Positions 1 through 26,269 of a stretch of 33,227 nucleotides of DNA are shown piece after piece. Location of the stretch: IMG/VR virus record IMGVR_UViG_3300008629_000016, positions 1 through 33,227 of that record; one strand, 5' to 3'. The stretch comes from a virus. The notes under the pieces are model-generated. The model was given only the letters and a program-made list of their open reading frames with translations, made no database searches and was not told the origin of the DNA. How positions within the stretch are numbered: the stretch's first letter is position 1; the number at the start of each line of letters is the position of its first letter. A program made the position numbers and the translations under genes.

Positions 1-604
1 GCCGCCGCTCGCCATCAGCACGACCCCGACCGGTCATGGCCACCTCGAGCCTCCCACCCCGGCCTCGAGACCACCCCGGGCCCCCGCTGACGAGCCGGTC
101 AGCGCCCCACCGAGGTCACGGGCCCGGATCGCTGCCGAAACCGGCCGTCACCAGCAGAAACGGCATCCGCCGGCGACCCCCCGGGACCGGGGTCCATAAA
201 CCAGCGGGCGGGGGGAGGGGGGAAAGGCACCACAGAAAGTCGCCGACATTCCGACACAGCTGGGCAGTCGGGTCGGCGCCGGCTCTTCCCGGTCGGTTTC
301 TGTCTGTTTCTCCCGGACCGTCGCCGTAGCCGGCGCCGGACCGGAGACTGCCCCCGGGAACGGACCCGTAACCCCCCTCCCGTGGTCCCCGACCGTTCTT
401 TAGAGAGCCGTCGTCGCTCGATGCCTGTACTCGCAACCCTTTACAGACCCGTTGGGGTGAAAGTTCCTCCCGGTCAGCCTGCCAGTGGCCCGGGGTTCGG
501 AATCCGAAGAGTCGAGTTGTACCCGGGGGCTGGCATCACTGTCTCGCCCGGGCTGGTCTACTAGACACCCGAGCATAGTCCACTCGACTCGGGTAGGAAT
601 GTGG
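1..604. other. Non-coding leader upstream of terminase (candidate regulatory or packaging region)
   Basis: I see no convincing gene in this stretch. Open frames here are GC-driven and have no ribosome site or recognisable protein. It holds a G-rich tract at 206-222, a GGACC/GGTCC palindrome at 184-195, two copies of the palindrome CGGCGCCGG (274-282 and 331-339), an interrupted palindrome TTCGGA-A-TCCGAA (496-508) and two overlapping inverted repeats just before the terminase gene. Its position next to the terminase gene makes a packaging (cos or pac) or promoter role possible, but nothing in the sequence proves it. No tRNA cloverleaf could be built. Confidence 0.5.
509..594. promoter_or_regulatory. 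Overlapping inverted repeats before the terminase ribosome site
   Basis: GAGTCGAGT at 509-517 is the exact reverse complement of ACTCGACTC at 582-590 (9 bp). ACCCGAG at 567-573 pairs with CTCGGGT at 588-594 (7 bp, 14-base loop). The two right arms overlap, so only one structure can form at a time. The shorter hairpin ends directly before the AGGA (595-598) used by the terminase gene, so it could affect its translation or bind a regulator. The role is inferred from position only. Confidence 0.35.
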
Positions 605-2500
605 ATGCCGAAGCCCCGACTGAAGAAGTACGAGACGTGGTCCAAGGATCGCCGCTACAAGGCGGCGATCAGCAAGGTCCTGAACGACGGCTGGACCCAG
701 TCCGACGCCGCCACCGAGTACGGGATCTCCCGCCAGCACCTGTCAGGCCGCCTCAAGCAGGCCCGGGAACAACGAGCCGAACGAGTCGAACAAGCCAAGG
801 CGCAAGCAGCTGTCGGGCCGCTCGGCATCAACGAGAAGCGCCGCATCGGCACGTTCGTCGAGTTCGTCGACCGGTACCTGTCCGGGTGGATGTGCCCGGA
901 CTGCGGCGTGCATCACGACGTCCCGGGGTTTCATCACGAGATCGCTGACGCCGTGACCGGCGATTACCGCCGGGTGTTGATCAACATGCCGCCGTACCAC
1001 AGCAAGTCGACGTTGGTGACGGTGTGGCACACGGTGTACGACATCTGCCGGGACCCGAATCTGCGGACCCTGTTGGTGTCGAAGTCTCTGCCGTTCGCTC
1101 GGACGTTCATGCACAGCATCTCGGAGATGTTGACGAACCCGGAGCTGTACAGGGATGGTCCGAACCCGATTCTGGACTGGGGGCCGTTCAAGTCGGATGG
1201 CCAGTCGACGTGGTCGTCGGAGCAGATTTACGTTGCCGGCCGGACGACGGCGGAGAAGGATCCGACGGTGGCGGCCCTTGGTGTCGGCCAGCAGATTTAC
1301 GGCCGCCGTGCCGACGTGCTGAAGTTCGATGACGTCGCCACGTTGGATAACCAGCGGAACCCGGATCGGGTGGCGGGGATGCTGGAGTGGTTCGACAAGG
1401 AGGCCCTGTCGAGGATCGGCAAGTCGGGGCGGGCCATCTGGATCGGCACCCGGGTGAATCCGGGCGACGTGTATTCGCAGCTGGCCTCGAGGGCCGGCTA
1501 CAAGGTTCTGCGGTACCCGTGCATCATGGATGACGAGACGGAGGCCACCCTGTGGCCGGAGCACTTCCCGTACGACCAAGCCCTCGTGCACCGCTCGGAG
1601 ATGCGGCCCGCTGACTTCCAGCTCATCTACCAGCAGGTCGACATTCCGGGCGTGGGGGCCAGCTTCACGCAGGACATGATCGACATGTGCAAGGACACGT
1701 CCCGTGTCCGAGGGCATTACGACTCGACGTGGCGGCTGTTCGCCGGCCTCGATCCGGCCGGCGGCAACAAGGGCTCCGGGTACACGGCGTTCACCCTGAT
1801 CGGTGTGGACCCGATGACCGGCAAGCGGTACCTCGTGGATTCGTTGGCGGTGAAGTCGATGAAGGCCCCGCAGATGAAGGACCAGATCCTCGACTGGACG
1901 GACCGGTACCCGCTGTTCGAGTGGCGGGTCGAATCCAACGGCGTGCAGTCACAGATCGTCCAGTACGACATGGAGCTCGTCCAGCACCTCGCCAAGCGGG
2001 GCGTCCGGGTCGTGCCGCATCACACGCACGGCAACAAGTGGGACCCCCAGTTCGGCGTCGAGTCGTTGGCCCCACTGATGGAGACGGGGCTGGTGTCAAT
2101 CCCGTGGGGGAACGCCCAGTCGACGCAAGCCTTCCAGCCCCTCGTCGAGGAGCTGATCGCTTTCCCGATGGGCGCCGTCTCGGACCGGGTGATGTCGATG
2201 TGGTTCGCCGACCTCGGCTGCCGGGAGCTGCTGAACCGGGCGCACCTCCCGATGTTCCATGAACGGATGAAGGTCCCGAACCGGGTGAAGCGCCGCCGCC
2301 GGGTCGTCGACTTCCAGAATCAGGAGGTCCGGGGGATCGCACTGCGGGACCAGCGCCCGGGCCACATGACTCGTGACCAGTGGGGGTACCGCCGCCAGAC
2401 CGTTGGAACGGCGGAGCCTCACGGTTCTGTGGAGGAGTACGACGCTGCCGAGGGGCCGCAACCAACCAACATCGACCCGACAATCTGGCAGGAACGGTGA
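605..2500 (+). CDS. terL: Terminase large subunit with N-terminal helix-turn-helix
   Basis: This is the ATPase and nuclease that packages DNA into the prohead through the portal. Residues about 20-55 form a helix-turn-helix (DGWTQSDAATEYGISRQHL), as in small terminases and transposases. A C-x2-C pair follows at 97-100. The ATPase domain has a P-loop-like MPPYHSKS (128-135) and a Walker B-like LKFDD (239-243). The nuclease domain has an acidic triad candidate: D383 in GLDPAGG, E443 in RVESNG, and D527 or D536. At 631 aa it is longer than many TerL proteins because of the N-terminal extension. I chose ATG 605 because AGGA at 595-598 lies six bases upstream. ATG 599 is possible but touches the AGGA, and an earlier in-frame start would add an unlikely leader peptide. 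No separate small terminase gene is visible in the window. Confidence 0.93.
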   Translation: MPKPRLKKYETWSKDRRYKAAISKVLNDGWTQSDAATEYGISRQHLSGRLKQAREQRAERVEQAKAQAAVGPLGINEKRRIGTFVEFVDRYLSGWMCPDCGVHHDVPGFHHEIADAVTGDYRRVLINMPPYHSKSTLVTVWHTVYDICRDPNLRTLLVSKSLPFARTFMHSISEMLTNPELYRDGPNPILDWGPFKSDGQSTWSSEQIYVAGRTTAEKDPTVAALGVGQQIYGRRADVLKFDDVATLDNQRNPDRVAGMLEWFDKEALSRIGKSGRAIWIGTRVNPGDVYSQLASRAGYKVLRYPCIMDDETEATLWPEHFPYDQALVHRSEMRPADFQLIYQQVDIPGVGASFTQDMIDMCKDTSRVRGHYDSTWRLFAGLDPAGGNKGSGYTAFTLIGVDPMTGKRYLVDSLAVKSMKAPQMKDQILDWTDRYPLFEWRVESNGVQSQIVQYDMELVQHLAKRGVRVVPHHTHGNKWDPQFGVESLAPLMETGLVSIPWGNAQSTQAFQPLVEELIAFPMGAVSDRVMSMWFADLGCRELLNRAHLPMFHERMKVPNRVKRRRRVVDFQNQEVRGIALRDQRPGHMTRDQWGYRRQTVGTAEPHGSVEEYDAAEGPQPTNIDPTIWQER

Positions 2501-2529
2501 CACCTGTCGGGTAGGGGGCTGAGGCCTCC

Positions 2530-2760
2530 ATGTTCAAGACTTTCCGTAACCGTCGGGCGTTCGAGCAGGCGGCACTCGAAGCGGGCGACGACGAGATCGT
2601 CTGCGGAACCCTGATCGACGACAAGCCCGTCTACTTCACGATGCCGGCCGACGCCACCGAGGCGCAGGTCCGTGAGCGGGCGTTCGAGGTGAGAACCGGA
2701 CGGCCTATGACGAAGATCGAACACACCCTCCTAGACATCGCCGTCACGGCCCGCACCTGA
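2530..2760 (+). CDS. Small hypothetical protein between terminase and portal
   Basis: This 76-residue protein is not recognised. It is soluble and mixed alpha/beta in character, with no membrane segment and a single cysteine. It begins 29 bases after the terminase stop with a purine-rich stretch (GGGGGCTGAGG) upstream. It ends in TGATG, where its TGA shares one base with the ATG of the portal gene, so the two are translationally coupled. Small genes between terminase and portal are frequent in phages, often accessory to packaging or head assembly. That role is inferred from position only. The frame is supported by tight spacing on both sides. Confidence 0.7.
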   Translation: MFKTFRNRRAFEQAALEAGDDEIVCGTLIDDKPVYFTMPADATEAQVRERAFEVRTGRPMTKIEHTLLDIAVTART

Positions 2761-4577
2761 TGTTGGAGCTGGATCGCCTGTCGGCGATGTACGCCCACTG
2801 GAGGTCCCGGCATTACGACCGGGACGTCCGCATGGAGACGATGGACCGGGTCGTCCGAGGCGACTTCGACATCTTCGACCCGGATGAGGAAGGCGTCGAT
2901 TCGAGGTCCCCGAACCTGATTCAGGTCGCCCTCGAGGACACCGCCGAGTCGGCGTCCCTCGTGCCGACCGTCAGGGTCCAGCCGGAGAAGTCCACGAAGG
3001 CCTCCAAGGCGACCGCCCGCACGATGGAGCAGGTCGCCGTGTCCTACATGGACATCAACGCTATGGACATGCTGATCCCCCGGTCGGTGATGGACAAGGC
3101 CGCCTACGGCATGTCTGTGTGGACGATCACCCCTGACTTCGAGCAGCGGATCCCGCTGATCGAGCGCCGGGACCCCCGGCAGTGTTACCCGGAGCCCGGG
3201 TTCCGGCCCGGCGACGAGATTCGCCGCTGCATGTTCTCCCGGGAGGTCTTCTTCACGCAGCTTCCCGCCGAGTACCAGCAGGTCCTGCGGGATTCGATCG
3301 CCGAGAACAGCGACCTCGAGGACCCCGACGAGAACGCCAAGGTCGTTCTTGTAGAGTATTACGACACCGACGAGTACGTCCTTGCCGGCCTGTATCAGGC
3401 GTCCACGTCGGGCCTCGTCGGCTACCGGTCCGATTCGGACGTCCCGTACCCGGTTCTCCTCGAACGCATCGAGAACAAGATCGGGGTGTGCCCGGTCGTG
3501 GTCGGTTCCCGGGTCAGCCTCGACGGCGAGATCCGAGGCCAGTTCGATCAGGTAGTAGGCCTCTTGGAGGCCCACATTCGCCTGATGGGTCTCATCCTCG
3601 ATTACGCCGATCAGGCCGTCTACTCGGACATCTTCGTGAAGGACCTCATCGGCGAGATGCCGTACGGCGGCGGTTCGTTCATCGAGCTGGGTCCGCAGGG
3701 TGCGATCGGCCGGGTCCCGCCGGCGGTCAGCTCCCTGAACGTGCAGGCCGACCTGATGTCCCTCATCGACGGCATCCACGTTGGTGGCCGTTGGCCGAAG
3801 TCTCGGCCCGGCGAGATCGACCAGTCGATCGCCTCGGCGAAGTTCCTCGAGGCGTCCGCCGGCATGATGAACACGGCGATCAGGACGTACCACCAGATCC
3901 TCCAGCGCCAGATGGAACGTGCCCTGCGGATCGCCCTCGAGATCGACAAGGCGTACTTCCCCGGCGAGAAGACCGCCGCCGGCATCCTCCGCAATCAGGA
4001 GTTCCTCACGGAGTACAACCCGAAGACGGACATCGACACGAAGCACCGTCTCCGAGTCGAGTACGGCCTCGGTCTCGGCCGTGACCCGGCTCAGTCCGCC
4101 GTGCTGCACATCCAGTACTCGCAGGCCGAGTTCGTGTCGAAGGAGTTTGTGCAGGAGAACATCGACGGCCTGACCGACGTGGGTCGGGAACGGTCCCGCC
4201 TCGACGCCGAGAAGTTCCGGGGCATGGCGCTCGCCAAGCTCCTACAGGGCCTCGAGGCCGGGATGATCCCCAACAAGGCGCTGGTCGAGATCGCTCGGGC
4301 CCGGGAGAAGGGCGACGACCTGTTCGACCTGTTCGAGAAGTACATCGTCGACCCGGAAGAGGAACGCCAGAACGCTCTCGTCGACACGGGCCTCGGCGCC
4401 CCCGTGGAGCCGGGCATGCCGCCCGGTCCCGGTGGCCCCCCGGGCCCGCCCGGCGGCCCCGGTGGCCCCGGCGGCCCGCCGATCCCGCCCCCGCCGCCTG
4501 AGGGCGCCGAGCTGCTGGCCCGTTTGGGGACGCCGGCCGGTGATGGCGGGATGCTCGGCACGCAGGTGACGGGATGA
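2760..4577 (+). CDS. Portal protein with collagen-like C-terminal tail
   Basis: This is the likely portal, the ring at the capsid vertex through which DNA passes. The evidence is its position after terminase, its length (605 aa), and its overall style: helical N-terminus, mixed middle, long helical stem-like region near residues 340-400, and a segment rich in charged helices after it. I recall portals of many actinobacterial phages having this kind of opening with short helices and a 'SPNLIQVALEDTAES'-type stretch. The C-terminus from about 550 to 585 is a run of Gly-Pro-Pro/Gly-Gly-Pro triplets ending in poly-proline, which is collagen-like and unusual for the core portal fold. It is probably an exposed flexible tail. 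The start ATG overlaps the upstream stop (TGATG), and the end overlaps the next small ORF by ATGA. Confidence 0.85.
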   Translation: MLELDRLSAMYAHWRSRHYDRDVRMETMDRVVRGDFDIFDPDEEGVDSRSPNLIQVALEDTAESASLVPTVRVQPEKSTKASKATARTMEQVAVSYMDINAMDMLIPRSVMDKAAYGMSVWTITPDFEQRIPLIERRDPRQCYPEPGFRPGDEIRRCMFSREVFFTQLPAEYQQVLRDSIAENSDLEDPDENAKVVLVEYYDTDEYVLAGLYQASTSGLVGYRSDSDVPYPVLLERIENKIGVCPVVVGSRVSLDGEIRGQFDQVVGLLEAHIRLMGLILDYADQAVYSDIFVKDLIGEMPYGGGSFIELGPQGAIGRVPPAVSSLNVQADLMSLIDGIHVGGRWPKSRPGEIDQSIASAKFLEASAGMMNTAIRTYHQILQRQMERALRIALEIDKAYFPGEKTAAGILRNQEFLTEYNPKTDIDTKHRLRVEYGLGLGRDPAQSAVLHIQYSQAEFVSKEFVQENIDGLTDVGRERSRLDAEKFRGMALAKLLQGLEAGMIPNKALVEIARAREKGDDLFDLFEKYIVDPEEERQNALVDTGLGAPVEPGMPPGPGGPPGPPGGPGGPGGPPIPPPPPEGAELLARLGTPAGDGGMLGTQVTG

Positions 4578-4693
4578 CCGACACCCACCCTGACATCGAA
4601 GCGTTCGAGAAGCTGATGGACGCTATGGCCGACCTCGACGGGGACGTTGCCTGCGATCTCGAGAACCCTGAGACGTGTGAGGCGTGCGACTGA
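4574..4693 (+). CDS. 39-residue acidic small ORF (MTDTHPDIEAF...)
   Basis: This short frame fits exactly between its neighbours. Its ATG overlaps the portal TGA (ATGA at 4574-4577) and its TGA shares a base with the ATG of the following gene (TGATG at 4691-4695). The product is very acidic, with two MDA/MAD-type helical turns and three cysteines near the end (ACDLENPETCEACD). The cysteine spacing could bind a metal, but the peptide is too short to assign a fold. The double coupled overlap is the main argument that it is translated. Function is unknown. Confidence 0.6.
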   Translation: MTDTHPDIEAFEKLMDAMADLDGDVACDLENPETCEACD

Positions 4694-5142
4694 TGGCCGA
4701 CGTCCCGGAGATCGAGAAGACGCCGACGTCTGACACGTCGGTCAACAAGCCGGAGTCCGGCACCTACGGCGAGAAGGCCGATCTCGCCCGGCTTCGCCAG
4801 TCGCTACCGCCGATGGGGCCCCCGGGGACGGAGGGGACCGGCGCTTCTGCGCCGGCCCCTACCCCCGGCCCCGGCGGTCCCGGCCTGAATCGTCCAACGG
4901 GCCGACCGAAGAACGCCCCCGAAGGCGTGCCGGCCCCGCTGCTGGCCCCCACGCAGAGGCCCGACGTCCCCCTGTCGCAGCCGCTGGCACCCGGGCCGGC
5001 ACCGATGCCGGCCAAGGCGGCAGCCGCAGACCAGCAGCGCCTTTCCGTGCTGGACGCCCTCGCCAACCACCCCGAGGTGTCTGAAGAGACCCGTGAGTGG
5101 GCGGCCCTCGTCCTCGACATCCTGATCACTGGCCGGCGATGA
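4693..5142 (+). CDS. Proline-rich hypothetical protein
   Basis: This 149-residue protein has a disordered Pro/Gly/Ala-rich middle (residues about 35-115, including PTPGPGGPGL). A short helical C-terminus follows (ADQQRLSVLDALANHPEVSEE... to the end). It starts at ATG 4693, which overlaps the previous stop. A GTG at 4684 in the same frame is less likely because ATG 4693 gives the same TGATG coupling seen across this block. The last bases overlap the next gene by ATGA (5139-5142). Together with the Gly-Pro tail of the portal it adds to a Pro-rich pair at the portal end of the operon. Function is not recognised. A linker or head-assembly role is only a guess. Confidence 0.75.
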   Translation: MADVPEIEKTPTSDTSVNKPESGTYGEKADLARLRQSLPPMGPPGTEGTGASAPAPTPGPGGPGLNRPTGRPKNAPEGVPAPLLAPTQRPDVPLSQPLAPGPAPMPAKAAAADQQRLSVLDALANHPEVSEETREWAALVLDILITGRR

Positions 5143-8100
5143 CCGACCTCACCGTCGACACGTTCGACGAGGAAGAGGTAGAGCCGGAGCAGCCGCCCGT
5201 ACCGTCCCTGCTCGAGCCGATCAGGCAGCAGGGCGTCGGGCAGGGGTCGATCGACCTCGCCACGATGATGATGCCCGGCGTCGCTGCCGGGCAGCTCGCC
5301 GCCCAGCGCAGCACCGGCGAGTTCACGCTGGCGGACCTGTTCGGCGGGATGACCGATCTCGCTACCGAGGTCAGCTACGGCATCCCCGTCATCGGCGACA
5401 TTCGTGGCGCCAAGATGGGCCTCGACATCATGGGGTCCGACACGGACCCGTTGACCGCCGTGTTCGGCGCCCTCGGGCTGGCCGGCCCGGCCGCCGGCCT
5501 TGTCGCCACCGGCGCCGTCGCTGCCGCTACCGGCGCCGCTACCCGTGGAGCCCGAGGCGCCCACCTGAAGACCGGCGCCCGCCCGGGCCGCCTCCACGAC
5601 TACGACGCCCCGCCGGTCACGACCCGGTACCTCCAGCCCGACGAGCTGTCCGCCCTGTCGGGCCAGTGGGACGAACCGATCCTCGCCAACGGGATCATCG
5701 CCACCACCGTTGGCCGGTCCCGCCAGCTGATGGCCGCCACGAGCGGCGTCGCCTACCAGTGGAAGATGTCCGACCGGGTCGCCCGCATCCGGGAAGCGAT
5801 CACCGGTTCGTACGACGACCAGCAGCGTGCATGGGTGGCGGGGAGCCGGGCCAACGACAAGCAGATCGACGGGTTCATCGTCGGCCTCGGCAAGAACCTC
5901 GTCAGGAACAACCCGGAGCACGGCCCCGAGGGGACCCTCGGCTCGACCGGCATGGACGAGACAAAGGCCTACCTGTCGGCCGCCGCCTTCGAGCTGTCGA
6001 AGTTCGACACGGCGATCGGCGACGACATCCTCAAGTTGGACCCGGCCTACCGGCATGTCGGCGTCGACGACCTGTGGCGCCGTATGACGTCCGGCGAGGT
6101 CCTCTCCGCCAGCGAGGTGGCGTCCCTGTCCAGCGCCGTCCTCGACTTGTCGATGATGACCCGGGGCGCCGGCCACCCACAGTTCGGCCTTCTCGATCTG
6201 CGGGCCCGAGTCTCGGAGATCCGCCTCGGCGGCGAGGAGCCCGGCGTGTCCGTGTCGTGGCTCCAGTTCGACGGGGTGCCTGCGGGCGGCTTCTCCGAAG
6301 CCGAAGCGATGAAGCGGCTGAACATGATCATGCAGCATCAGCCGCACGGCGCCGTCGCCCTGATGTCTCAGAACGCCGCCGACTTCTTGAACAAGGAGGT
6401 CATCCCGCATTGGGACGACCTGATGCGGGCTGTTCCCCGGTACGCCGAGGCGCACCCGGCTTTGCGAGGAGACGACACGGTGCAGGTCGTCCCGATCGCC
6501 GACATCGAGATGCTGCCCCGCAACCCGGCAGACGAGCTCGACGTCACCGACCTCGCCGTCGACATTCGTGAAAACGGGATGGCGGAACCGCTCCAGATCG
6601 TCTGGCACCCCGACACCGGTGCGGCGAAGATCCGAGACGGCAACAAGCGTCTCGAGGCCGCCAAGCGGATCGGGCTGGAAGCAGTCCCCGTGAAGATCGT
6701 CGCCGACAGGCGGATCACCGGCGAGCGGACGAAGACCACGAAGGGCCTCGTCAAGAAGCTCGGCATGGTCCACGCCACCGGCGAGGACGGCAAAAAGCTG
6801 TACCACCCCGACAAGTCGAAGGTGATGGTCCCCGAGGAGGTCCCCGACAAGCTGACCCCGTCGTCGGTCAACCTCCACCGGGCCCCTGACATCTACCGGG
6901 GCATCATCCCGGAGAAGGCCCGGACGCTGGACTGGGGGGCCCTCTGGTACCAGATCGCCTACGAGGAGACGGCGGGGCTCGCCGCCTTCCACGGGCTGAA
7001 CCACGAGCGACTCATCGGCCTCGCCTCGCTGCTGTCGGCCGGCGAGCTGTGGGAGCAGAACATCGACAAGGCCGCAGTGGCCGCCAACTGGCTTCGAGAC
7101 AACCCCGATGCGGACGCCACGGGGTTCCAGAAGTACATGTCGGAGTCTGGCCTGACTGCCACCGATGACGAAGCGAAGAACGTGATGGCCCTGATGGCCG
7201 TCGCCGACGACGACATCGAGGGCTGGTTCTACGGCCAGCTCCTCGGCGACGCCGCCCTGAAGCAGCCCAACTTCACGATGGCGATCTTGCAGGCCGACCC
7301 GAAGAAGCAGACGACGGCCGCTGCCCTCAGCTACGGCCTGTACACGGGCCGGATCGCCAACACGGACACCCACAAGCTGTTCTCCGAGCTCGACCTCGAC
7401 GTGTACGCCGTGATCGACCGGCACGCCTTCTCCATGATGTTCGGCTTCTCGTCGAAGCCGGAGGGGTCGCTGTCCGACAAGGGGTACCGGCTGGCACGTC
7501 GAGCGATGGAGATCGCAGCGCAGGCTGCCGGCGAGTTCGACCTGCCGGGCGGCCCGAACGGCCAGATGGTGCGCCGCACCCTGTCCCCGTCGGAAGCTCA
7601 GGCCCTGCTGTGGGTTCGGTGGCGGGAGTTCCGTGGCGTCACGAAGAACTACAAGACGTACGACCCGTCGCCCCGTCAGGCCACCACGCCGAAGGACTAC
7701 CACAAGGGCCTCCCCGGCGGTTCCGGCGGGTCCGGCATGAAGAGCCTGCACCGTCCGCCGCTGTTCATCGAGGGCCTCGGGCCGGACAAGATTTTCAACA
7801 GGCGGATCCTCGACTACCTCGAGAACCCGGTCCCGCAGCACCTGACTCGCCGAGGCGTCGCCGCCGAAGGTGGTCCCGGGCCGAAGATGCGTCTCGCCGA
7901 CCTTGCCGGCACGTTCAAGCGCAAGACGAAAGAGGGGTTTGCGTACCGGCATTCCGGGTCGATCGACCGGCTCGACACGGTCATGCTGGTCCAGACGCCG
8001 GACGGACTGTTCCTCGCCTCTCCGGCGGGTACGGGGCCCGAGTCGCTCCGGGGCCTGTACCCGTCGTACGCCCACGTCAACGGCAACCAGATCCTCCGTC

Positions 8101-19496: not shown

Positions 19497-20860
19497 TGGG
19501 CACGGGGGGATACGGCCCCGGTGGGACGTTGACGTGGGACGAGTACGTTGCACAAGTCAATCCGTCGGGCCGCAAGGGGTCTTATTGGGAGTTCGACTCG
19601 AAGACTCGGGAGAGCGTTCTCGTTACGCCGGGTTCCTCCGGCCTTGAGGTTGGTACACGCATTCCGGGCTGGGCTGATGTCGGCCAGTACGCCGATAGCG
19701 GCACGATTGTGCATGCGAATGCATGGATGGCCGACCGGGAGCACCCGGGTTTGTCCGACGGCGACGACGAGCGGTCGCCGTTCTCGAAGACGAACCTCGT
19801 CGCCGAGCTGGTCGGCAAGTACCCGTGGGCGAAGGAGCTCGGCTTCCTCGACCTCATCAAGCGTCTCGCCGTCGAGGACGCCACCGCCGACCAGATCGTC
19901 GCCGAGGTCCGAGCCTCGGACCAGTACAAGAAGCAGTTCCCCGGGTTCTCCGACCTGTCGGGGGTGCGGCGGTTCCGGGACGAGGCCGAGTATCTCCGCA
20001 CCCGGGACGACCTCCGGCAGGTCCTGAAGGACTTCGGGGTGTACGACCCGGCGACCGATTCGCCGATGGACTACGTCGCCTTCTTCGACGCAGGCATCGA
20101 CGCCAACGAGTTGACCGAACGGTTCGGGGTGTACCGGGAGCTCGAGCGTGGTTCGCAGGAGCTGCGTGACGCCTTCTACGTCTACGGGGGCCTCGACGTC
20201 ACCGTCGACGACCTGTTCCAAGCGGTCGTGTCTCCGCAGTTCCGTCAGGAGCTCCAGAACGAGTACGACCGGAGCGTGGCTGCCCAGCCTCTCGACTACG
20301 GGACGTACATCGAGCGGGCCCGGGAGGTGTCGACGGCCCGGGTCGTGGAGACGATGGAGCGGCTCCGAGACTCGGGGGCGATGACCGGCGCTGCCGTGTC
20401 GAAGGTTCTCCAGATGGACCCGGCGTTCGGCCAGCAGCTGATGGCCGCCCTGTTCACCGGCGGCACGGCCGCCGCCGGCACCGGCACCTTGTCCCTCGAC
20501 CAGCTGACCCGGGCGTACGAGCATGCCGTGCTGGGTGCGGCAGCGTCGGAGGCCGGCTGGGCGATGCCGTCTCGGGATCGCCTCGAGGAGTTCAGGCAGG
20601 CCGGCATCCAGTCGTCGACGCTGCGGTCCGCCTACGAGGGCCTGTCCCTCAGGTCGGATGCCCTGACCGGGATGGTCCAGCGGGCGAACCGGGGTGCGTC
20701 GATGACGCAGGACCTGTACGAGCGGGAGCTCCTCGGCCAGACCGCCGAGATCCGGCACGCTACGGCCGCCGAAAACGCACTGGGCGCCCGGGCCGGCGGT
20801 TTCGCCGCCGCCCGTGAGGGTCGACGGTTCGCCCAGCCCGGACGCCGAGTGGCGTACTAG
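19496..20860 (+). CDS. Helical structural protein closing the giant-protein block
   Basis: This 454-residue protein has a Gly-rich start and a long helical body. A segment near residues 110-185 (VRASDQYKKQFPGFSDL... RDEAEYLRTRDDLRQVLKDFGVYDP) resembles stretches common in actinophage structural proteins that alternate 'FPG', 'EYL' and 'YG' motifs. The C-terminus is basic and Ala/Gly/Arg-rich (AAREGRRFAQPGRRVAY). The ATG overlaps the preceding TAA (TAATG). The stop TAG lies within a CTAG tetranucleotide (20857-20860) that also holds the stop of the convergent minus-strand gene. The likely role is a virion internal or neck component, inferred from coupling. No enzyme motif was seen. Confidence 0.8.
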   Translation: MGTGGYGPGGTLTWDEYVAQVNPSGRKGSYWEFDSKTRESVLVTPGSSGLEVGTRIPGWADVGQYADSGTIVHANAWMADREHPGLSDGDDERSPFSKTNLVAELVGKYPWAKELGFLDLIKRLAVEDATADQIVAEVRASDQYKKQFPGFSDLSGVRRFRDEAEYLRTRDDLRQVLKDFGVYDPATDSPMDYVAFFDAGIDANELTERFGVYRELERGSQELRDAFYVYGGLDVTVDDLFQAVVSPQFRQELQNEYDRSVAAQPLDYGTYIERAREVSTARVVETMERLRDSGAMTGAAVSKVLQMDPAFGQQLMAALFTGGTAAAGTGTLSLDQLTRAYEHAVLGAAASEAGWAMPSRDRLEEFRQAGIQSSTLRSAYEGLSLRSDALTGMVQRANRGASMTQDLYERELLGQTAEIRHATAAENALGARAGGFAAAREGRRFAQPGRRVAY

Positions 20861-21099
20861 TCGTCGAACCCGTCAGGGGTCCAGACGGCGTCGATTTCTC
20901 GAGTCGTCAGGAACAGGCCGTGGCTCAGGAACGGCAGCCGGGACTGGTGGGCGCCCCGCAGCTGGCGGGCGTGCTGGAACGACCGGGCCCGGCGCTTGAC
21001 GCCGCACTTGCCGCACGAGAAGAACGTGATGCCGTAGGGGCGGCCGCCGTGCTTCGGGTACTTCTTGATGCGGAGGATGGCTCCGCAGTCCTTGTTCAC
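20857..21099 (-). CDS. Small basic protein with CxxC motif (minus strand)
   Basis: This 80-residue basic protein is not recognised. It has one Cys near the N-terminus (NKDCGAIL) and a C-x2-C (FSCGKCGVKRR), so a small zinc-binding site is possible but incomplete. The start is GTG at 21097-21099, preceded at the right distance by GGAGG on the minus strand, and it overlaps the stop of the upstream minus gene (GTGA). A much longer frame exists upstream but lies in another gene. Its TAG overlaps the stop of the convergent plus-strand gene. With its partner it forms a two-gene minus-strand cassette inside the structural genes, so it is more likely regulatory or accessory than a virion part. Confidence 0.7.
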   Translation of the reverse strand: MNKDCGAILRIKKYPKHGGRPYGITFFSCGKCGVKRRARSFQHARQLRGAHQSRLPFLSHGLFLTTREIDAVWTPDGFDD

Positions 21100-21425
21100 T
21101 GTCCTGCCTCCTTGGGGTTGAGGACCTGCCGGGCGACCTTGGAGACCCGGTCGGACCAGAAGCAGCGGGTGGTCGTCTGGATGGGGTTCCCGGCCTTGGT
21201 GTAGGGGCCGGAGCAGTGGACCTCGATGCGGCCGTCCGGGACGGTGCGGCCGTGGTCGAACTTCCACCAGTAGCGGGAGCCTCGGATGCGGAACATCCGG
21301 CCGGCGGTCAGCGGGAGCCGACCCTCGAGCCGGAGCTCCTCGTGGAAGGCCCAGCCTCGGGCCTCGAGGGCGAGGCGCCGGGCCTCGATGTTGCTTTGGA
21401 TTGCTTTGCGAGCAGCTGCGCTCAT
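21096..21425 (-). CDS. Small hypothetical protein, possibly a compact beta fold (minus strand)
   Basis: This 109-residue protein has an N-terminal helix (AAARKAIQSNIEARRLALEARG). A strand-rich part follows (LTAGRMFRIRG, YWWKFDHGRTVPDGRIEVHC, TRCFWSDRV). I recall small actinophage proteins with a similar 'G...F...G.....F' pattern but cannot name a function. A strong GAGGAGGA lies seven bases before ATG 21425. It is coupled to the downstream minus gene by a GTGA overlap. A possible promoter lies about 30-55 bases upstream on the minus strand. Orientation against all other genes suggests separate timing of expression, perhaps early or constitutive. Confidence 0.72.
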   Translation of the reverse strand: MSAAARKAIQSNIEARRLALEARGWAFHEELRLEGRLPLTAGRMFRIRGSRYWWKFDHGRTVPDGRIEVHCSGPYTKAGNPIQTTTRCFWSDRVSKVARQVLNPKEAGQ

Positions 21426-21452
21426 GTGGTGTCCTCCTCGTGGGTTGACACC

Positions 21453-21481
21453 AGTTTACCAGTAACCCCCCAGTGCGTCCG
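21453..21481 (-). promoter_or_regulatory. Candidate promoter for the minus-strand pair
   Basis: On the minus strand, TAAACT (complement of 21453-21458) fits a -10 box (TAnnnT). A weak CGGACG lies 17 bases upstream as a -35. Transcription would start about 20 bases before ATG 21425. The -35 match is poor, as is common in high-GC genomes, so confidence is low. Confidence 0.3.
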
Positions 21482-21604
21482 GTCGCCCCTTTCGACCCTC
21501 GGACCGAACAGGCCCCTGACCTGCGGTATTGCAGAATCCTTTCGCCAGCGGCAAGATTCCGAAAACCCTCTGACCTGCGTGTATGACAGTTTCGTTACGA
21601 TCGC

Positions 21605-21635
21605 TTGACTCGAGGTCCGGGTCTAGGAGTACACA
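21605..21635 (+). promoter_or_regulatory. Candidate promoter for the scaffold/capsid operon
   Basis: TTGACT (21605-21610) matches five of six -35 bases. A weak -10-like TACACA lies 19 bases downstream (21630-21635). An alternative -10-like TACGAT at 21596-21601 has no good -35. The transcript would carry an approximately 75-base leader including the 21662-21688 hairpin. Confidence 0.35.
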
Positions 21636-21661
21636 CTCGGCGGGAGAGGGTTTAGACCATC

Positions 21662-21688
21662 CCTGCCGGCGACCCCGGGGCCGGCGGG
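21662..21688 (+). promoter_or_regulatory. GC-rich hairpin in the scaffold gene leader
   Basis: A 9-bp stem (21662-21670 with 21680-21688, one T-G wobble, centred on GCCGGC) closes a 9-base loop about 30 bases before the scaffold ATG. No T-tract follows, so termination is unlikely. Transcript stabilisation or protein binding is possible. Confidence 0.4.
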
Positions 21689-21718
21689 TGTAGGTGACAC
21701 CGGGCGTAGGAGCAGACC

Positions 21719-22177
21719 ATGTACGACCACGACGACGACGTCGAGGAGTCAGGGTCAACCCTCCGGCGAAAGCTGGAGGAGACACTCAGCGAGAACAAGG
21801 CACTCGCCACCGAGCTGTCCGGTTTGAAGGCCAAGGAGCTGATCACCGAACAGGGACTGGGGTTGGTGAAGCCAGACGATCTCATGGGAGTCGACCTGAG
21901 TGAGATGGCCGAACGGGCCAGCCAGCTCCAGCAGGAGCGGGCGGGCCAGCAGGCCGATCTGGCTCGGGACATGCTGGCGAGGCGTGGCCTCGAGGGCGAA
22001 GAGCTGGATCAGGCAGTCTCAGACTTCTTGACCCCGCCGGAAGCCCCTCGGGACACGGCAGCCCACAGCAGGGCCCGGGAGGTCTCTGTGATCGGCGGCA
22101 CTGCCGCTCCGGTCCGGGACACCTCGAACCTGACGGGGCTGGACGCCATCGAGCACGCCCTACGGCACGGCTCGTAG
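21719..22177 (+). CDS. Putative head scaffolding protein
   Basis: This 152-residue, acidic, largely helical protein lies directly before the major capsid gene, the usual place for scaffolds. Residues about 12-40 (LRRKLEETLSENKALATELSGLKAKELI) and 60-90 (MAERASQLQQERAGQQADLARDML) look like coiled coils rich in Glu, Gln, Leu and Ala. The end carries a short helical tail (LTGLDAIEHALRHG) of the sort scaffolds use to contact capsid subunits. It has an AGGAG ribosome site eight bases before ATG 21719. It is the first gene after the control region, so it and the capsid gene are probably transcribed together. Assignment rests on position and composition, since scaffolds share little sequence. Confidence 0.7.
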   Translation: MYDHDDDVEESGSTLRRKLEETLSENKALATELSGLKAKELITEQGLGLVKPDDLMGVDLSEMAERASQLQQERAGQQADLARDMLARRGLEGEELDQAVSDFLTPPEAPRDTAAHSRAREVSVIGGTAAPVRDTSNLTGLDAIEHALRHGS

Positions 22178-22179
22178 CC

Positions 22180-22210
22180 AGCTCCTACCAACCCAACCTA
22201 CACAGGAGCT
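22180..22210 (+). promoter_or_regulatory. Inverted repeat covering the capsid gene ribosome site
   Basis: AGCTCCT (22180-22186) is the exact reverse complement of AGGAGCT (22204-22210), which contains the Shine-Dalgarno AGGAG of the major capsid gene. A 17-base loop separates them. The left arm starts three bases after the scaffold stop, so a ribosome ending there would open the stem. A competing pairing GTAG/CTAC (22174-22188) overlaps the left arm. Confidence 0.5.
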
Positions 22211-22218
22211 AAAACCCA

Positions 22219-23154
22219 ATGGCAACAGGGTCCCTTGGTCTCCTTGAGGCTGCCAAGTACGGCTCGACGACTCTCGGGCGTGGCGTGGTCACCACGCTGA
22301 TCCAAGAGTCGCCGATCCTCGAGATGCTCCCGTTCACGGGGATCTCCGGCAACGCCATCAAGGTGACCGTCGAGGACACCCTCCCCGCCCCGGCCTTTCG
22401 TGACGTCAACGAGACGTACACGAGGAGCCACGGCACCGATACCGAACGCTACTTCGGCTGTTCGATCCTCGGTGGAGAGGTGTTCATCGACAACTACATC
22501 GTGCGGGTGCAGGCCGATCAGGTGTCGGCCAAGGCCCGCCAGTACTCGAAGTTCGCCAAGGCGATGTCCCGTACTTTCGACAAGTACTTTTTCGACGGCA
22601 CGGGCACGGCCAAGGACTTCAAGGGCATCAACGCCCTGATCGACGACGGCCTCGGGCAGAAGCGGGCAGCCGGCACCAACGGTGCGGCGCTGACCCTCGA
22701 CATGCTCGACGAGACGTTCGACGACCTGCGTTCGCAGTCGTCGCCGGACGTGCTGCTGATGAACCGGACGCTGCGCCGGGACATCAACAAGCTGGCCCGT
22801 TCGACGTACTCGGGCGTCAGCCTGATCGACGTCGGCACCGACGTGTTCGGTCGTCAGGTCACCACCTACAACGGCACCCCGATCCGCATCGTCGGAGACG
22901 ACAAGGATGGCAACGCCATCCTCGGCTTCGACGAGACGCAGGGGTCGTCGTCCACGACGGCTTCGATCTACGCCATCGCCTTCGGCACCGACGAGAACGT
23001 CTACGGCATTCTCGGCCTCGGCGGTTCGTTCGATGTCAAGGACTTCGGCGAGACCGAGGCGGCCCCCGGCCACCTCGGCCGTGTCGAGGTGTACCCCGGC
23101 ATCGTCGTCGCCAACTCCTTCTCGACCGTGCGTCTGCACGGCGTGACCAGCTAG
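22219..23154 (+). CDS. Major capsid protein (HK97-like)
   Basis: This 311-residue protein forms the head shell. It matches the pattern of a well-spread actinophage capsid family: N-terminal LLEAAKYGSTTLGRGVVTTLIQESPILEMLPF, then GNAIKVTVEDTLPAPAFRDVNETY, a helix with KAMSRTFDKYFFDG, a 'PDVLLMNRTLRRDINKLAR' spine helix, and a C-terminal GHLGRVEVYPGIVVANSFSTVRLHGV strand region. It has no long N-terminal delta domain, in agreement with a separate scaffold upstream. Its ribosome site AGGAG (22204-22208) lies in an inverted repeat. The start ATG 22219 is ten bases after it. The following gene has its own GGGAGG site. As the most abundant virion protein it is expected to be the most highly expressed gene here. 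Confidence 0.9.
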   Translation: MATGSLGLLEAAKYGSTTLGRGVVTTLIQESPILEMLPFTGISGNAIKVTVEDTLPAPAFRDVNETYTRSHGTDTERYFGCSILGGEVFIDNYIVRVQADQVSAKARQYSKFAKAMSRTFDKYFFDGTGTAKDFKGINALIDDGLGQKRAAGTNGAALTLDMLDETFDDLRSQSSPDVLLMNRTLRRDINKLARSTYSGVSLIDVGTDVFGRQVTTYNGTPIRIVGDDKDGNAILGFDETQGSSSTTASIYAIAFGTDENVYGILGLGGSFDVKDFGETEAAPGHLGRVEVYPGIVVANSFSTVRLHGVTS

Positions 23155-23164
23155 GGAGGCTGAC

Positions 23165-23575
23165 ATGGCACAGGCCACTCGTACCGTTGGCCCGGGCACT
23201 CTCGTCCGGGACGCCAACGCTCCGACCTTGCAGGCGACCGGCAACGTGTCTTCGGACACGACCGGCTCGTGGGTGCAGGTCGACCGTCCGTGCGACGTTC
23301 AGGTCGTCATGGACCTCGGCACGATCGCAGCCGGCGTGACCGGCTTCGACGTTGAGGTGCAGGGCGCCGACGACAGCTCGGGCACCAACACCGTCTCGTA
23401 CGGCCGCTTCGACACCGTCGGAGCGTCGGACGACGACACCACCCGGGTCCTCCACGCCAGCGTGTACAAGCCGTACATGCGGGTCGACATGGACCACACC
23501 GGCTCCGGCAACGTGGGCGTCACCATCACGGTGCGCCAGCCCCACGACCGGAAGACGGACTCCACCACCGCCTAG
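23165..23575 (+). CDS. Putative capsid decoration or minor head protein
   Basis: This 136-residue, strand-rich, Thr/Asp/Gly/Val-rich protein directly follows the major capsid gene with its own GGGAGG site seven bases before the ATG. The sequence reads like a small beta-sandwich (WVQVDRPCDVQVVMDLG, GVTGFDVEVQGAD, YMRVDMDHTGSGNVGVTITV). Proteins of this size and place often decorate the head surface or form small fibres. No membrane segment or enzyme motif is seen. It is followed by two strong hairpins. The role is inferred from location and composition, and it could also be a minor tail component. Confidence 0.65.
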   Translation: MAQATRTVGPGTLVRDANAPTLQATGNVSSDTTGSWVQVDRPCDVQVVMDLGTIAAGVTGFDVEVQGADDSSGTNTVSYGRFDTVGASDDDTTRVLHASVYKPYMRVDMDHTGSGNVGVTITVRQPHDRKTDSTTA

Positions 23576-23582
23576 CGGGACA

Positions 23583-23628
23583 CCGCTGGGCCTGCCAGCG
23601 GCATCCGGGGCTTCGGGCCCCGGGTGCC
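23583..23628 (+). terminator. Two overlapping hairpins after the capsid/decoration genes
   Basis: Stem one pairs 23583-23589 with 23595-23601 (CCGCTGG/CCAGCGG, 5-base loop). Stem two pairs 23605-23611 with 23617-23623 (CCGGGGC/GCCCCGG, loop TTCGG) and can extend to 12 bp (23600-23611 with 23617-23628). In extended form it takes bases 23600-23601 from stem one, so the full structures exclude each other. No T-tract follows, as in many high-GC terminators. It may lower expression of downstream genes or protect the 3' end of the capsid transcript. Confidence 0.6.
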
Positions 23629-23653
23629 GCCGGCCCTCGGTGGGAAGGGACAA

Positions 23654-24151
23654 ATGTCGCACGACAGCACGAACTCGAAGACGTGGAACGTCGAGGCTGT
23701 CGTTGAGAAGTGGGACCGGTCCGGCGACCGTGAGGCGGGCCTTCCGCCGGACGACGTCGTGTCTGCCCGGGACAACCTGCTCCTCAACGAGGGCATCAAC
23801 CTGCTGCTGGACCTGTTGATCGGGGCCGGCGGGTCGGCGTACACGAACGGCAACGCCTACATCGGTGTCGGCGATTCGTCGACGGCGGCTGCTGCCGCCG
23901 ACACCGGCCTTCTGGCCTCGTCGAACAAGGACTATCAGGCGATGGAGTCCGGGTATCCGTCTCGGTCCGGCCAGACCGTGACGTTCCGTGCGATATGGGG
24001 TTCCGCCGAAGGCAACTTCGTTTGGAACGAATGGACCATCGCCAACGGCAACTCGAACTCGTCGACGAACCTGAACCGCAAGGTCGCTGCCCTCGGGACG
24101 AAGGCGTCCGGCTCGGAGTGGACCCTGACGGTGACCATCACGGTGAGCTGA
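23654..24151 (+). CDS. Phage structural protein (NEGINLLLDLL...GVGDS type)
   Basis: This 165-residue protein has a layout I recognise from many tailed phages. A helix (ARDNLLLNEGINLLLDLLIG) is followed by 'AYIGVGDSSTAAAAADTGL', 'MESGYPSRSGQTVTFRAIWG', 'NFVWNEWTIANG' and a final 'LNRKV..LGTKASGSEWTLTVTITVS'. The family is strand-rich and usually annotated only as structural, often near tail fibre genes, as here. ATG 23654 was chosen because GGGAAGGGA lies just upstream. An in-frame ATG at 23624 would fall inside the hairpin. One base separates its stop from the next ATG. Confidence 0.75.
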   Translation: MSHDSTNSKTWNVEAVVEKWDRSGDREAGLPPDDVVSARDNLLLNEGINLLLDLLIGAGGSAYTNGNAYIGVGDSSTAAAAADTGLLASSNKDYQAMESGYPSRSGQTVTFRAIWGSAEGNFVWNEWTIANGNSNSSTNLNRKVAALGTKASGSEWTLTVTITVS

Positions 24152-24152
24152 C

Positions 24153-24908
24153 ATGGCGAGCAACTACCCCAGCTCGCTCGACACGGCGACGCAGCAGCCG
24201 TCGCCGTCGGCCACCGACGAGATGGACGACGCCGGCCTCGAGCACGATCTTGTCCACTCGAATGCGTCGGAGGCCCTCCTCGCCCTTGAGGCGAAGCTAG
24301 GCGTCGGCGCTACGACCGCTGCGGCTGCGTCGACGGACGAGATCCTCGTCAAGCAGTCCGATGGCGACACCGAGTGGGTGACGAATCCGGCGAAGACGTC
24401 TGCTGCGACGGCGTCGGCCGATGGCTACATGACGTCGGCGTACGCCTCGAAGCTGGACGGCATCGAGGCGTCAGCAACTGCCGATCAGACGGCGGCCGAC
24501 ATTCGGGGCCTCGGCTTCTTCGATACCTCGAATGACGGGGCCAGCTCCGGGTTGGATGCGGACCTGTTGGACGGTCAGCACGGGTCGTACTACGCCCCGG
24601 CTACCCCGGCAATCAGCTCTCAGACGGCCTCGTACACCCTCGTTATCGGCGACGCTGGTGATGTCGTCGAGGTATCGAACGGGTCAGCGAACACGGTGAC
24701 GGTCCCGCCGAACTCGTCGGTGGCGTTCCCGGTAGGGACTCAGATCGTCGTGGTTCAACAGGGTGCTGGCGCAACAACGATCGCTGCTGGTGCCGGGGTG
24801 ACGCTCCGGTCGAAGGATTCGAACCTGTCGATTGACGGCCAGTACGCATCGGTGGCTCTCGTGAAGAGGGCGACCGATGAGTGGTACGTCATCGGCGCTC
24901 TGGCCTGA
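24153..24908 (+). CDS. Putative tail fibre protein
   Basis: This 251-residue protein has typical fibre motifs. These are 'MTSAYASKLDGIEASATADQTAADI' near residues 92-116, 'LDADLLDGQHGSYYAP' near 130-145, and a C-terminal strand-rich knob with alternating small residues (TVTVPPNSSVAFPVGTQIVVVQQGAGATTIAAGAGVTL... ending DEWYVIGALA). Such domains trimerise and carry host-binding tips. It begins one base after the preceding stop and is coupled to the Gly-rich gene by TGATG. It probably attaches at the particle vertex or tail through its N-terminus. Attachment and receptor are unknown. Confidence 0.75.
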   Translation: MASNYPSSLDTATQQPSPSATDEMDDAGLEHDLVHSNASEALLALEAKLGVGATTAAAASTDEILVKQSDGDTEWVTNPAKTSAATASADGYMTSAYASKLDGIEASATADQTAADIRGLGFFDTSNDGASSGLDADLLDGQHGSYYAPATPAISSQTASYTLVIGDAGDVVEVSNGSANTVTVPPNSSVAFPVGTQIVVVQQGAGATTIAAGAGVTLRSKDSNLSIDGQYASVALVKRATDEWYVIGALA

Positions 24909-25783
24909 TGATCAGCCCGGCGCTGCTGGGCGCTATCGCCAGCTCTGCGGGCGGGTTCGCCTATTCAACGACGGGTTCCCCTTCAACGGGAACTGACGGC
25001 AGTTACACATGGTTGAAGTGGACTGGTTCAGGGTCGTTGACGATTGCGGCGTTGCCTGATGGCGGGTTGAACGCTGATGTGTTGATTGTCGCTGGTGGCG
25101 CTAGTGGTGGCCGACATCAGGGTGGCGGCGGTGGCGCTGGCGGTATGCAGACCGTTACGGGCGTGGCGTTGTCAGAAACGGCGTACACGATCACTGTTGG
25201 TGGCGGTGGTGCGGGCGGCAACTTTCCCGGTGTAGATGGGTCTGATTCGTCTGCGTTGGGGACGACTTCTACAGGCGGCGGTGGCGGCGGGGCGGCGCAT
25301 GGCGCTGGGTCTGCTGGCGGTTCTGGCGGCGGCGGTTCTGGATACAACCAGTCGGGTGGTGCTGGCACCAGCGGTCAGGGCAACGCTGGTGGTGATTCGT
25401 TGTCGATCAGCGGCGTGAACGCTGGTGCTGGTGGCGGCGGTAAGGCTGTTGCCGGTTTAGACCCCACGGGGACAGCCGTACCTTGCAATGGCGGTCACGG
25501 CGGCAGCGGTTCGGACAACTGGTTCGCTGGATCGTGGGCCAAGTATGCGGGCGGTGGAGGTGGTGGAGCCGATAACGATTCGGGTGGCACTTCCACTGGC
25601 GGCACGGGCGGTACTGGTGGAGGTGGCGCTGGTGCCGACGGCGACTCGGATACGCAGTCAACTCTTTATGCGGTGGCTGGCACCGCTAACACTGGTGGCG
25701 GCGGCGGTGGTGGCGGTCATTCCTACAATATTGGGGCGTCGGGCGGGTCAGGGGTCGTCGTGGTCCGCTGGCTCACCCCGTAG
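24908..25783 (+). CDS. Glycine-rich tip or adhesin-like protein
   Basis: This 291-residue protein is made mainly of Gly runs (GGGGGAGG, GGGGGGAAHG, GGSGGGGSG, GGTGGTGGGGAG). It has the framing motifs of a widespread glycine-rich phage family: 'NADVLIVAGGASGG' at the start, 'TVGGGGAGG', 'SGQGNAGG', 'GTANTGGGGGGGG', and the final 'GGSGVVVVRW'. The runs probably pack as polyglycine helices, as in adhesin tips of fibres, and the variable loops contact the receptor. Codon use differs from neighbouring genes (many GGT, GCT and TCT), so it may have a separate history or be under diversifying selection. The start ATG 24908 overlaps the previous stop. An earlier in-frame GTG lies inside the fibre gene. 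Confidence 0.8.
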   Translation: MISPALLGAIASSAGGFAYSTTGSPSTGTDGSYTWLKWTGSGSLTIAALPDGGLNADVLIVAGGASGGRHQGGGGGAGGMQTVTGVALSETAYTITVGGGGAGGNFPGVDGSDSSALGTTSTGGGGGGAAHGAGSAGGSGGGGSGYNQSGGAGTSGQGNAGGDSLSISGVNAGAGGGGKAVAGLDPTGTAVPCNGGHGGSGSDNWFAGSWAKYAGGGGGGADNDSGGTSTGGTGGTGGGGAGADGDSDTQSTLYAVAGTANTGGGGGGGGHSYNIGASGGSGVVVVRWLTP

Positions 25784-25792
25784 GAGACTGAC

Positions 25793-26146
25793 ATGGCGCA
25801 CTACGCAGAAGTCATCGACGGCCTCGTTCAGAGAGTTGTCGTCGTGTCCAACGACGTAACCGTCACCGATGGTGTGGAGTCCGAACAGGCAGGCATCGAC
25901 CTGCTGGACGAGATCATGCCGACCGATGGGGCGTGGGTGCAGACCTCCTACAACGGGTCGATTCGTCACAACTATGCCGGTATTGGTGATACATGGGACT
26001 CCGATGCTGGAGCGTTCTACAGTCCGCAGCCCTACGGGTCATGGTCGTTGGATGACGACTATCGGTGGCAGCCTCCGATCCCGATGCCCGATGACGGCAC
26101 CCTCTACAACTGGGACGAGGACACCACTACCTGGGTTGCCGCATGA
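25793..26146 (+). CDS. Small conserved phage protein (MAHYAEV...MPDDGTLYNWDE type)
   Basis: This 117-residue protein shows a pattern I recall from many aquatic phages: 'MAH.AE....VQRVVVVSN', 'WVQTSYNGSIRHNYAGIGDTWD', 'F.SPQPY.SW.LDDDYRWQPPIPMPDDG..YNWDE....W'. Its function is not established to my knowledge. Its place after fibre genes suggests a structural or fibre-associated role. AGGAG precedes ATG 25793 by seven bases. The stop overlaps the next small ORF (ATGA). This is the last gene wholly within the CGCG-free part of the window. Confidence 0.8.
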   Translation: MAHYAEVIDGLVQRVVVVSNDVTVTDGVESEQAGIDLLDEIMPTDGAWVQTSYNGSIRHNYAGIGDTWDSDAGAFYSPQPYGSWSLDDDYRWQPPIPMPDDGTLYNWDEDTTTWVAA

Positions 26147-26268
26147 ACCGTGCAGCCCGCTACGTCCACGACGCCATCCAACCCGGCGTCTCCACCTACG
26201 CAGGCTGCGCCCTCACCGCCCTCGCCCTCAAAGTCACCGCCAACCAGCGCGCCGAAAGCTGGGCGTGA
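26143..26268 (+). CDS. 41-residue small ORF (MNRAARYVHDAIQ...)
   Basis: This short frame starts in an ATGA overlap with the preceding gene and ends one base before the amidase ATG, filling the gap exactly. The middle (VSTYAGCALTALALKV) is a short hydrophobic helix, too short for a certain membrane segment. It has no known relative that I recognise. It contains the first CGCG of the window, at 26248. Translation is supported only by the fit between neighbours. It may serve mainly to couple translation to the amidase gene, which lacks a good ribosome site. Confidence 0.5.
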   Translation: MNRAARYVHDAIQPGVSTYAGCALTALALKVTANQRAESWA

Positions 26269-26269
26269 C

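What the first reader, a model, noticed from the sequence alone, without database searches (positions are those of the whole stretch)
1..26247. CGCG appears to be absent from the first 26 kb and frequent in the last 7 kb
Reading line by line I found no CGCG from 1 to 26247. The first is at 26248, and about 40 follow up to 33227 (for example 26458, 26470, 26507, 26690, 26723, 27078). At about 65% G+C, chance would give nearly 300 in the left part. The left part uses Arg CGC freely before A, C or T but switches to CGT, CGG or CGA before G (for example 11080-11100 and 13315-13335), so synonymous codons are chosen to avoid the word. This looks like escape from a restriction or other defence system recognising CGCG, in a segment with a different history from the lysis/tail/regulator segment, or an assembly join near 26.15-26.25 kb.
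Basis: partly seen in the sequence, partly recalled or inferred. Interest (0 to 1): 0.8.

Follow-up and report, generated by a model that had tools for sequence, protein, structure and literature searches.

The report
Marine phage clade lacking CGCG
The first 25 kb of this contig belongs to a group of ocean viruses, probably infecting actinobacteria, that have removed every copy of the DNA word CGCG from their genomes, most likely to escape a bacterial DNA-cutting enzyme, while the last 8 kb comes from a different virus that keeps CGCG, so the sharp switch marks a join between two viruses.

Summary
CGCG occurs 0 times in 1-26247 (Markov expectation 151; synonymous-codon shuffles give 144-229) and 41 times in 26248-33227. 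The depletion belongs to a phage lineage, not to this contig: of 74 loci encoding a relative of its major capsid protein, 70 have no CGCG (724,604 bases, 1,960 expected, near-copies included), and records of 37-51 kb are CGCG-free throughout, at 43-62% G+C. The right part is a different phage type (B): its genes match B-type records (mostly 49-92% identity; A-type absent or 24-30%), which keep CGCG but avoid 6-bp palindromes (O/E 0.34 right, 0.92 left). The A-to-B change lies at about 24.91-25.06 kb, in a glycine-rich tail gene, not at 26.25 kb. The join is probably an assembly chimera; a real recombinant is not excluded. Best mechanism: elimination of a Type II restriction site under pressure from actinobacterial hosts (WhiB genes in 11 of 25 phage records; one relative in an Acidimicrobiaceae MAG). 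The enzyme itself was not found. Restriction-site avoidance is a known kind; unusual here are its completeness, its conservation across very different G+C, and its presence in integrase-encoding members.

The parts
1..24908 (+). A-type phage segment, CGCG-free: terminase large subunit 485-2500, portal 2760-4577, two giant ORFs 5097-10232 and 10229-15823, major capsid protein 22219-23154, tail fibre 24153-24908
   Evidence: CGCG 0; family hits; best matches in A-type records, e.g. terminase 86%, MCP 86%, tail fibre 75%
22219..23154 (+). major capsid protein used to find the CGCG-free clade
   Evidence: phrog_212, E 3.4e-60; 74 relatives, 70 of them without CGCG
24908..25783 (+). glycine-rich tail protein gene in which the A-type and B-type sequences meet (change at about 24908-25059)
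   Evidence: L073 aligns from 24968, L074 equals the window up to 25266 and L073 from 25060
24968..26146 (+). shared tail module, CGCG-free but carrying the 6-bp palindrome avoidance of the B type
   Evidence: CGCG 0 against 5.9 in codon shuffles; 6-bp palindromes 2 against 14.6 expected; present in B-type contig L073
26150..33227 (+). B-type phage segment with 41 CGCG: amidase endolysin 26150-27001, possible holin 26991-27239, structural-type genes 28244-29128 and 29129-31003, exonuclease-like 31214-32287, HTH regulator 32677-33225 (open at the end)
   Evidence: identity 31-92% to B-type records, A-type absent or 24-30%; families; CGCG 41

Best explanation
The left part comes from a clade of marine tailed phages whose genomes have been purged of CGCG by selection, mainly through synonymous codon choice, because their hosts (actinobacteria, probably Acidimicrobiia) commonly carry a Type II restriction system, or an equivalent nuclease, that cuts unmodified CGCG. 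The switch near 26 kb is seen because the contig joins this A-type phage, within a glycine-rich tail gene at about 24.9-25.1 kb, to a B-type phage that keeps CGCG but avoids 6-bp palindromes. Shown: the absence, its clade-wide and genome-wide extent, its selective nature, and the two-phage composition. Inferred: the restriction system, the host class, and that the join is more likely an assembly chimera (about 65%) than a real recombinant (about 35%).
For: Zero CGCG in 70 of 74 MCP-clade loci, 724,604 bases, 1,960 expected, and genome-wide in records G001-G005, G007-G010, G012, G013, G019 (0 against 24-183 each), at 42-67% G+C. Codon shuffle 0 against 188. Other palindromes are lost sublineage by sublineage, as restriction would do: AGCT 0/115, TTAA 0/22, TCGA 1/97, GGCC 0/74; 6-bp palindromes 0.37-0.82 while other 6-mers are 1.00-1.03. 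Cultured actinophages with a distantly related MCP are normal (0.91, 0.94). WhiB in 11 of 25 A- and B-type records; L154 in an Acidimicrobiaceae MAG. CGCG is a methylated motif of marine MGIIA archaea and some marine Caudovirales (PMC9516812). Site elimination is an established anti-restriction strategy (PMC6286503). Two-phage composition.
Against: No CGCG-specific enzyme found: ThaI family in 0 of 395 genomes of the BH8 MAG's class, and other CGCG enzymes could not be recognised without REBASE. Genomes sampled from that class are not uniformly depleted (O/E 0.45-1.19). Five CGCG-free records encode an integrase, and PMC6286503 reports that temperate phages eliminate sites less often. The host link rests on WhiB and one binned contig; a 97% MCP relative (L153) was binned as Deltaproteobacteria.
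Confidence: 0.72

Rival explanations
1. The contig is a natural recombinant: an A-type phage that recently took over the tail, lysis and regulator arm of a B-type phage, the join being real DNA. (This concerns the join only; the cause of CGCG absence on the left stays the same.)
For: A second contig, L074, carries the same A-left/B-right arrangement. A recent exchange of at least the glycine-rich gene is implied in any case, since the A-left allele shares 207 identical bases (25060-25266) with B-type L073.
Against: The right arms of window, L073 and L074 are identical from 25543 on but for one base, while the left arms belong to different phage types; no other MCP relative with downstream sequence has a B-type right arm; A-type phages have their own distant versions of 28244 and 29129 and an endolysin in another module; window and L074 switch at different points.
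Confidence: 0.35
2. The absence is caused by the phage itself: the lineage encodes a CGCG-specific nuclease (used against host or rival DNA) and must lack its own target.
For: The absence follows the phage lineage over a very wide G+C range, which suggests that it survived host changes. A PD-(D/E)XK nuclease is conserved in most A-type records.
Against: That nuclease matches exonuclease families (phrog_1218, phrog_69), not site-specific enzymes. No gene is shared by all CGCG-free phages of both groups and missing from CGCG-containing ones. Other palindromes are lost in a sublineage-specific way, which points to varying host enzymes.
Confidence: 0.06
3. Mutational decay: CGCG is methylated in lysogens and lost by deamination to TGCG/CGCA, without selection.
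For: Some members encode an integrase, so long residence in a methylating host is possible.
Against: TGCG is not in excess in any CGCG-free genome tested (0.72-0.96 of expectation), and decay alone would not reach 0 of 1,960.
Confidence: 0.02
4. Chance, base composition or amino-acid composition.
For: None found.
Against: Markov expectation, codon shuffle and persistence at 42-67% G+C all exclude it.
Confidence: 0.01

Closest known systems
Restriction-site avoidance by prokaryotic viruses (Rusinov et al. 2018, PMC6286503)
   Same: A 4-bp palindrome, the typical target of an orthodox Type II restriction enzyme, is eliminated from a dsDNA phage genome, mainly by synonymous change
   Different: Here a whole clade spanning 42-67% G+C is at zero, including integrase-encoding members, whereas the paper finds near-complete elimination mainly in non-temperate phages; and the host enzyme is unknown
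CGCG restriction-modification systems (ThaI of Thermoplasma as Pfam PF15514; CGCG m4C methylation in marine MGIIA archaea and some marine Caudovirales, PMC9516812)
   Same: Same recognition word; marine setting
   Different: No ThaI relative in 395 genomes of the suspected host class; the phages here look actinobacterial (WhiB), not archaeal; methylation of these phages or their hosts was not measured
Streptomyces phage Rowa and Gordonia phage Nyceirae (cultured actinophages with an MCP about 35% identical)
   Same: Distantly related major capsid protein, actinobacterial hosts
   Different: Siphovirus-type tail genes with a tape measure and no CGCG avoidance (O/E 0.91 and 0.94)

Membership tests
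Restriction-site avoidance in a phage genome | A recognition-type word is significantly under-represented against a Markov or codon model | tested here: met
   0 against 151 and 0 against 144-229
Restriction-site avoidance in a phage genome | The depletion is specific to palindromic, restriction-type words | tested here: met
   CGCG is the lowest word in the window's left part; in relatives further palindromes, but not other 6-mers, are depleted
Restriction-site avoidance in a phage genome | The host carries a restriction-modification system for the avoided word | tested here: inconclusive
   Hosts not firmly known; ThaI family absent from 395 genomes of one candidate class; other CGCG enzymes cannot be told by profile without REBASE
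Restriction-site avoidance in a phage genome | Infection is restricted when sites are present | not testable with these tools
   Needs a cultured host or a cloned system
ThaI-type CGCG restriction | ThaI-family endonuclease in the host class | tested here: not met
   0 of 395 genomes
Phage-borne methylation as the alternative protection | CGCG-keeping phages encode a cytosine methyltransferase, CGCG-free ones do not | tested here: inconclusive
   PF00145 in CGCG-keeping G022, G023, G025 and in no A-type record, but also in CGCG-free G026, G031 and not in G024, G028, G034, G035, G011, G014
Assembly chimera | Two ends of the contig belong to different genomes | tested here: met
   Gene identities and two avoidance signatures flip; L073 has another left arm
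Assembly chimera | No read crosses the join | not testable with these tools
   Reads are not available

The most novel reading that the evidence does not exclude
The CGCG taboo is a fixed trait of this phage lineage across hosts: a near-universal and undescribed CGCG-directed defence of marine actinobacteria, or less likely a phage-borne site-specific factor, has kept the word at zero while base composition moved between 42% and 67% G+C, even in integrase-carrying members.
Probability: 0.2. Interest if true: 0.75.

Novelty: new member of a known kind. Interest (0 to 1): 0.5.

Why it matters
A word completely missing from a whole phage clade predicts a specific enzyme in uncultured marine hosts, so missing words can be used to read host defence repertoires and to link viruses to hosts. 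It also gives a simple test for joins in viral contigs: left and right here differ in two independent avoidance signatures. And integrase-encoding members that still lack every site bear on the claim that temperate phages rarely eliminate sites.

Tried and rejected
Gene present in all CGCG-free and no CGCG-containing phages: none spans both free groups, A and B'. attP matches to find the host: hits were Lys/Ala-rich coding repeats or weak. Whole tRNA genes in A-type records as host clue: only one, in G008. ThaI in the BH8 MAG's class: none. Host-wide CGCG depletion in that class by ACGCGT against TGCGCA and by sampled sequence: mixed. CGCG methyltransferase in CGCG-keeping B phages: suggestive only. 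Deamination: rejected. Chance for the 24.97-26.15 kb stretch: 0 against 5.9 expected and no shuffle at 0, so not chance alone; its origin is left open. Further contigs across the join: only L073 and L074. Literature on CGCG in marine actinobacteria: only PMC9516812 turned up. A first codon shuffle had one gene out of frame (left set) and was redone.

Full report
Observation. CGCG is absent from 1-26247 and occurs 41 times in 26248-33227. On the left it is by far the most depleted tetranucleotide (0 against 151; z -12.3). Shuffling synonymous codons among the left genes gives 144-229 copies. The two long left stretches without a called gene (1-484, 20861-21718) also have none. In the right part the word is only mildly depleted (39 in genes against 68 in shuffles).

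What the left part is. Terminase, portal, two giant ORFs, major capsid protein (MCP) and tail genes. The MCP has 72 relatives in IMG/VR and 2 in MAG contigs, one binned as Acidimicrobiaceae, one as Deltaproteobacteria. 70 of the 74 loci have no CGCG, in 724,604 bases against 1,960 expected, near-copies included (48 distinct full-length MCPs with the window). The loci span 42-69% G+C, the CGCG-free ones 42-66%; relatives in the window's own subclade at 44-47% G+C (L007, L008, L009, L012) are as free of the word as the window's left part at 67%. Longer records of 37-51 kb, some of which also cover the right arm, are free throughout: for example 0/94 (G001), 0/151 (G007), 0/180 (G008), 0/183 (G009). 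In the MCP tree the full-length members with CGCG (L059, L061, L064) lie on deep branches outside the main clade; the three copies in L058 all lie in the last 68 bases of that contig.

Why restriction is the best reading. Relatives also lack other palindromes, differently in each sublineage: AGCT, TTAA, AATT in G007; AGCT, TTAA in G008; TCGA in G004 and G010; GGCC in G002. In A-type records 6-bp palindromes are at 0.37-0.82 of expectation while other 6-mers are at 1.00-1.03. Loss by deamination would leave TGCG in excess, and it does not. Cultured actinophages with a distantly related MCP have normal CGCG (0.91, 0.94). Site elimination is a known anti-restriction strategy, mainly for orthodox Type II sites and less complete in temperate phages (PMC6286503); five CGCG-free A-type records here encode an integrase (G001, G002, G003, G009, G019). 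CGCG is a methylated motif in marine MGIIA archaea and in some marine Caudovirales (PMC9516812). WhiB genes, typical of actinobacteria (general knowledge; among the 14 control genomes only Corynebacterium rang), are in A-type G004, G009, G010 and in several B-type records, which with L154 points to marine actinobacteria. The enzyme was not found: ThaI is absent from 395 genomes of the BH8 MAG's class, and sampled genomes of that class show CGCG O/E 0.45-1.19.

What the right part is. Gene by gene, identity flips. Up to 24153-24908 the best matches are A-type (terminase 86%, MCP 86%, tail fibre 75%). The genes 24908 and 25793 match both types about equally (45/41%, 50/55%). From 26150 on the matches are B-type (81, 76, 49, 62, 74, 64, 70, 92, 31%), with A-type absent or 24-30%. 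B-type records keep CGCG at about 0.4-0.7 of expectation, while a more distant B' group has almost none. A second signal agrees: 6-bp palindromes are at 0.92 on the left and 0.34 on the right; B-type L088, L095 and the left of L073 are also low, and A-type L153 is not.

Where the join is. L073, a B-type contig with its own left arm (27 CGCG in 5,059 bases), aligns to the window from 24968 and is identical from 25543 to the end but for one base. L074 equals the window up to 25266 and L073 from 25060 up to its end, again but for that base. So the A-to-B change lies at about 24.91-25.06 kb, in the first part of the glycine-rich tail gene. The CGCG-free run goes on to 26247 because the module 24968-26146 also lacks the word (0 against 5.9) while showing B-like palindrome avoidance (2 against 14.6). 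It may be a module that moves between both phage types and so obeys both rules (inference).

Chimera or recombinant. Identical right arms on wholly different left arms, and the lack of any other MCP relative with this arrangement, favour an assembly chimera across a recently exchanged tail module. L074, with a different switch point, keeps a real recombinant possible. Reads would decide.

Gene content. No single gene tracks CGCG absence across both free groups. C5 methyltransferases occur in B-type G022, G023, G025 and in B' G026, G031, and in no A-type record. That would fit two strategies, erase the site or methylate it, but the specificity is unknown and the fit is incomplete.

Verdict. A real and strong signal, best read as clade-wide elimination of a restriction site in marine actinophages, visible as a switch because the contig joins two phages.

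Noticed in passing
records G002, G004, G007, G008, G010 (loci L158-L166, L170-L172, L178-L179): Besides CGCG, sublineages of the clade have wiped out other palindromes: AGCT 0/115 and TTAA 0/22 (G007), TCGA 1/97 (G010), GGCC 0/74 (G002), and many 6-bp palindromes. The lost words form a fingerprint per sublineage.
   Followed up: partly
L105-L147, records G026, G029-G033: A second, only distantly related phage group (B', about 41-44% G+C) also has almost no CGCG (e.g. 0/74, 0/67, 1/61), so the loss arose at least twice in phages with related right-arm genes.
   Followed up: partly
window 24968-26146: Tail module shared with B-type contig L073 that is both CGCG-free and poor in 6-bp palindromes, as if it had lived under both avoidance rules.
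   Followed up: partly
L198:11920-14338 (record G022): Two C5 cytosine methyltransferase genes close together in a CGCG-keeping B-type phage.
   Followed up: partly
window 20861-21718: About 860 bases between the 19496-20860 gene and the 21719 gene without an evident gene; in A-type relative G001 the corresponding gap is under 100 bases.
   Followed up: no
window 4764-10181, minus strand: A 1805-codon open frame antisense to the giant ORF 5097-10232; probably a by-product of G+C-rich codon use.
   Followed up: no
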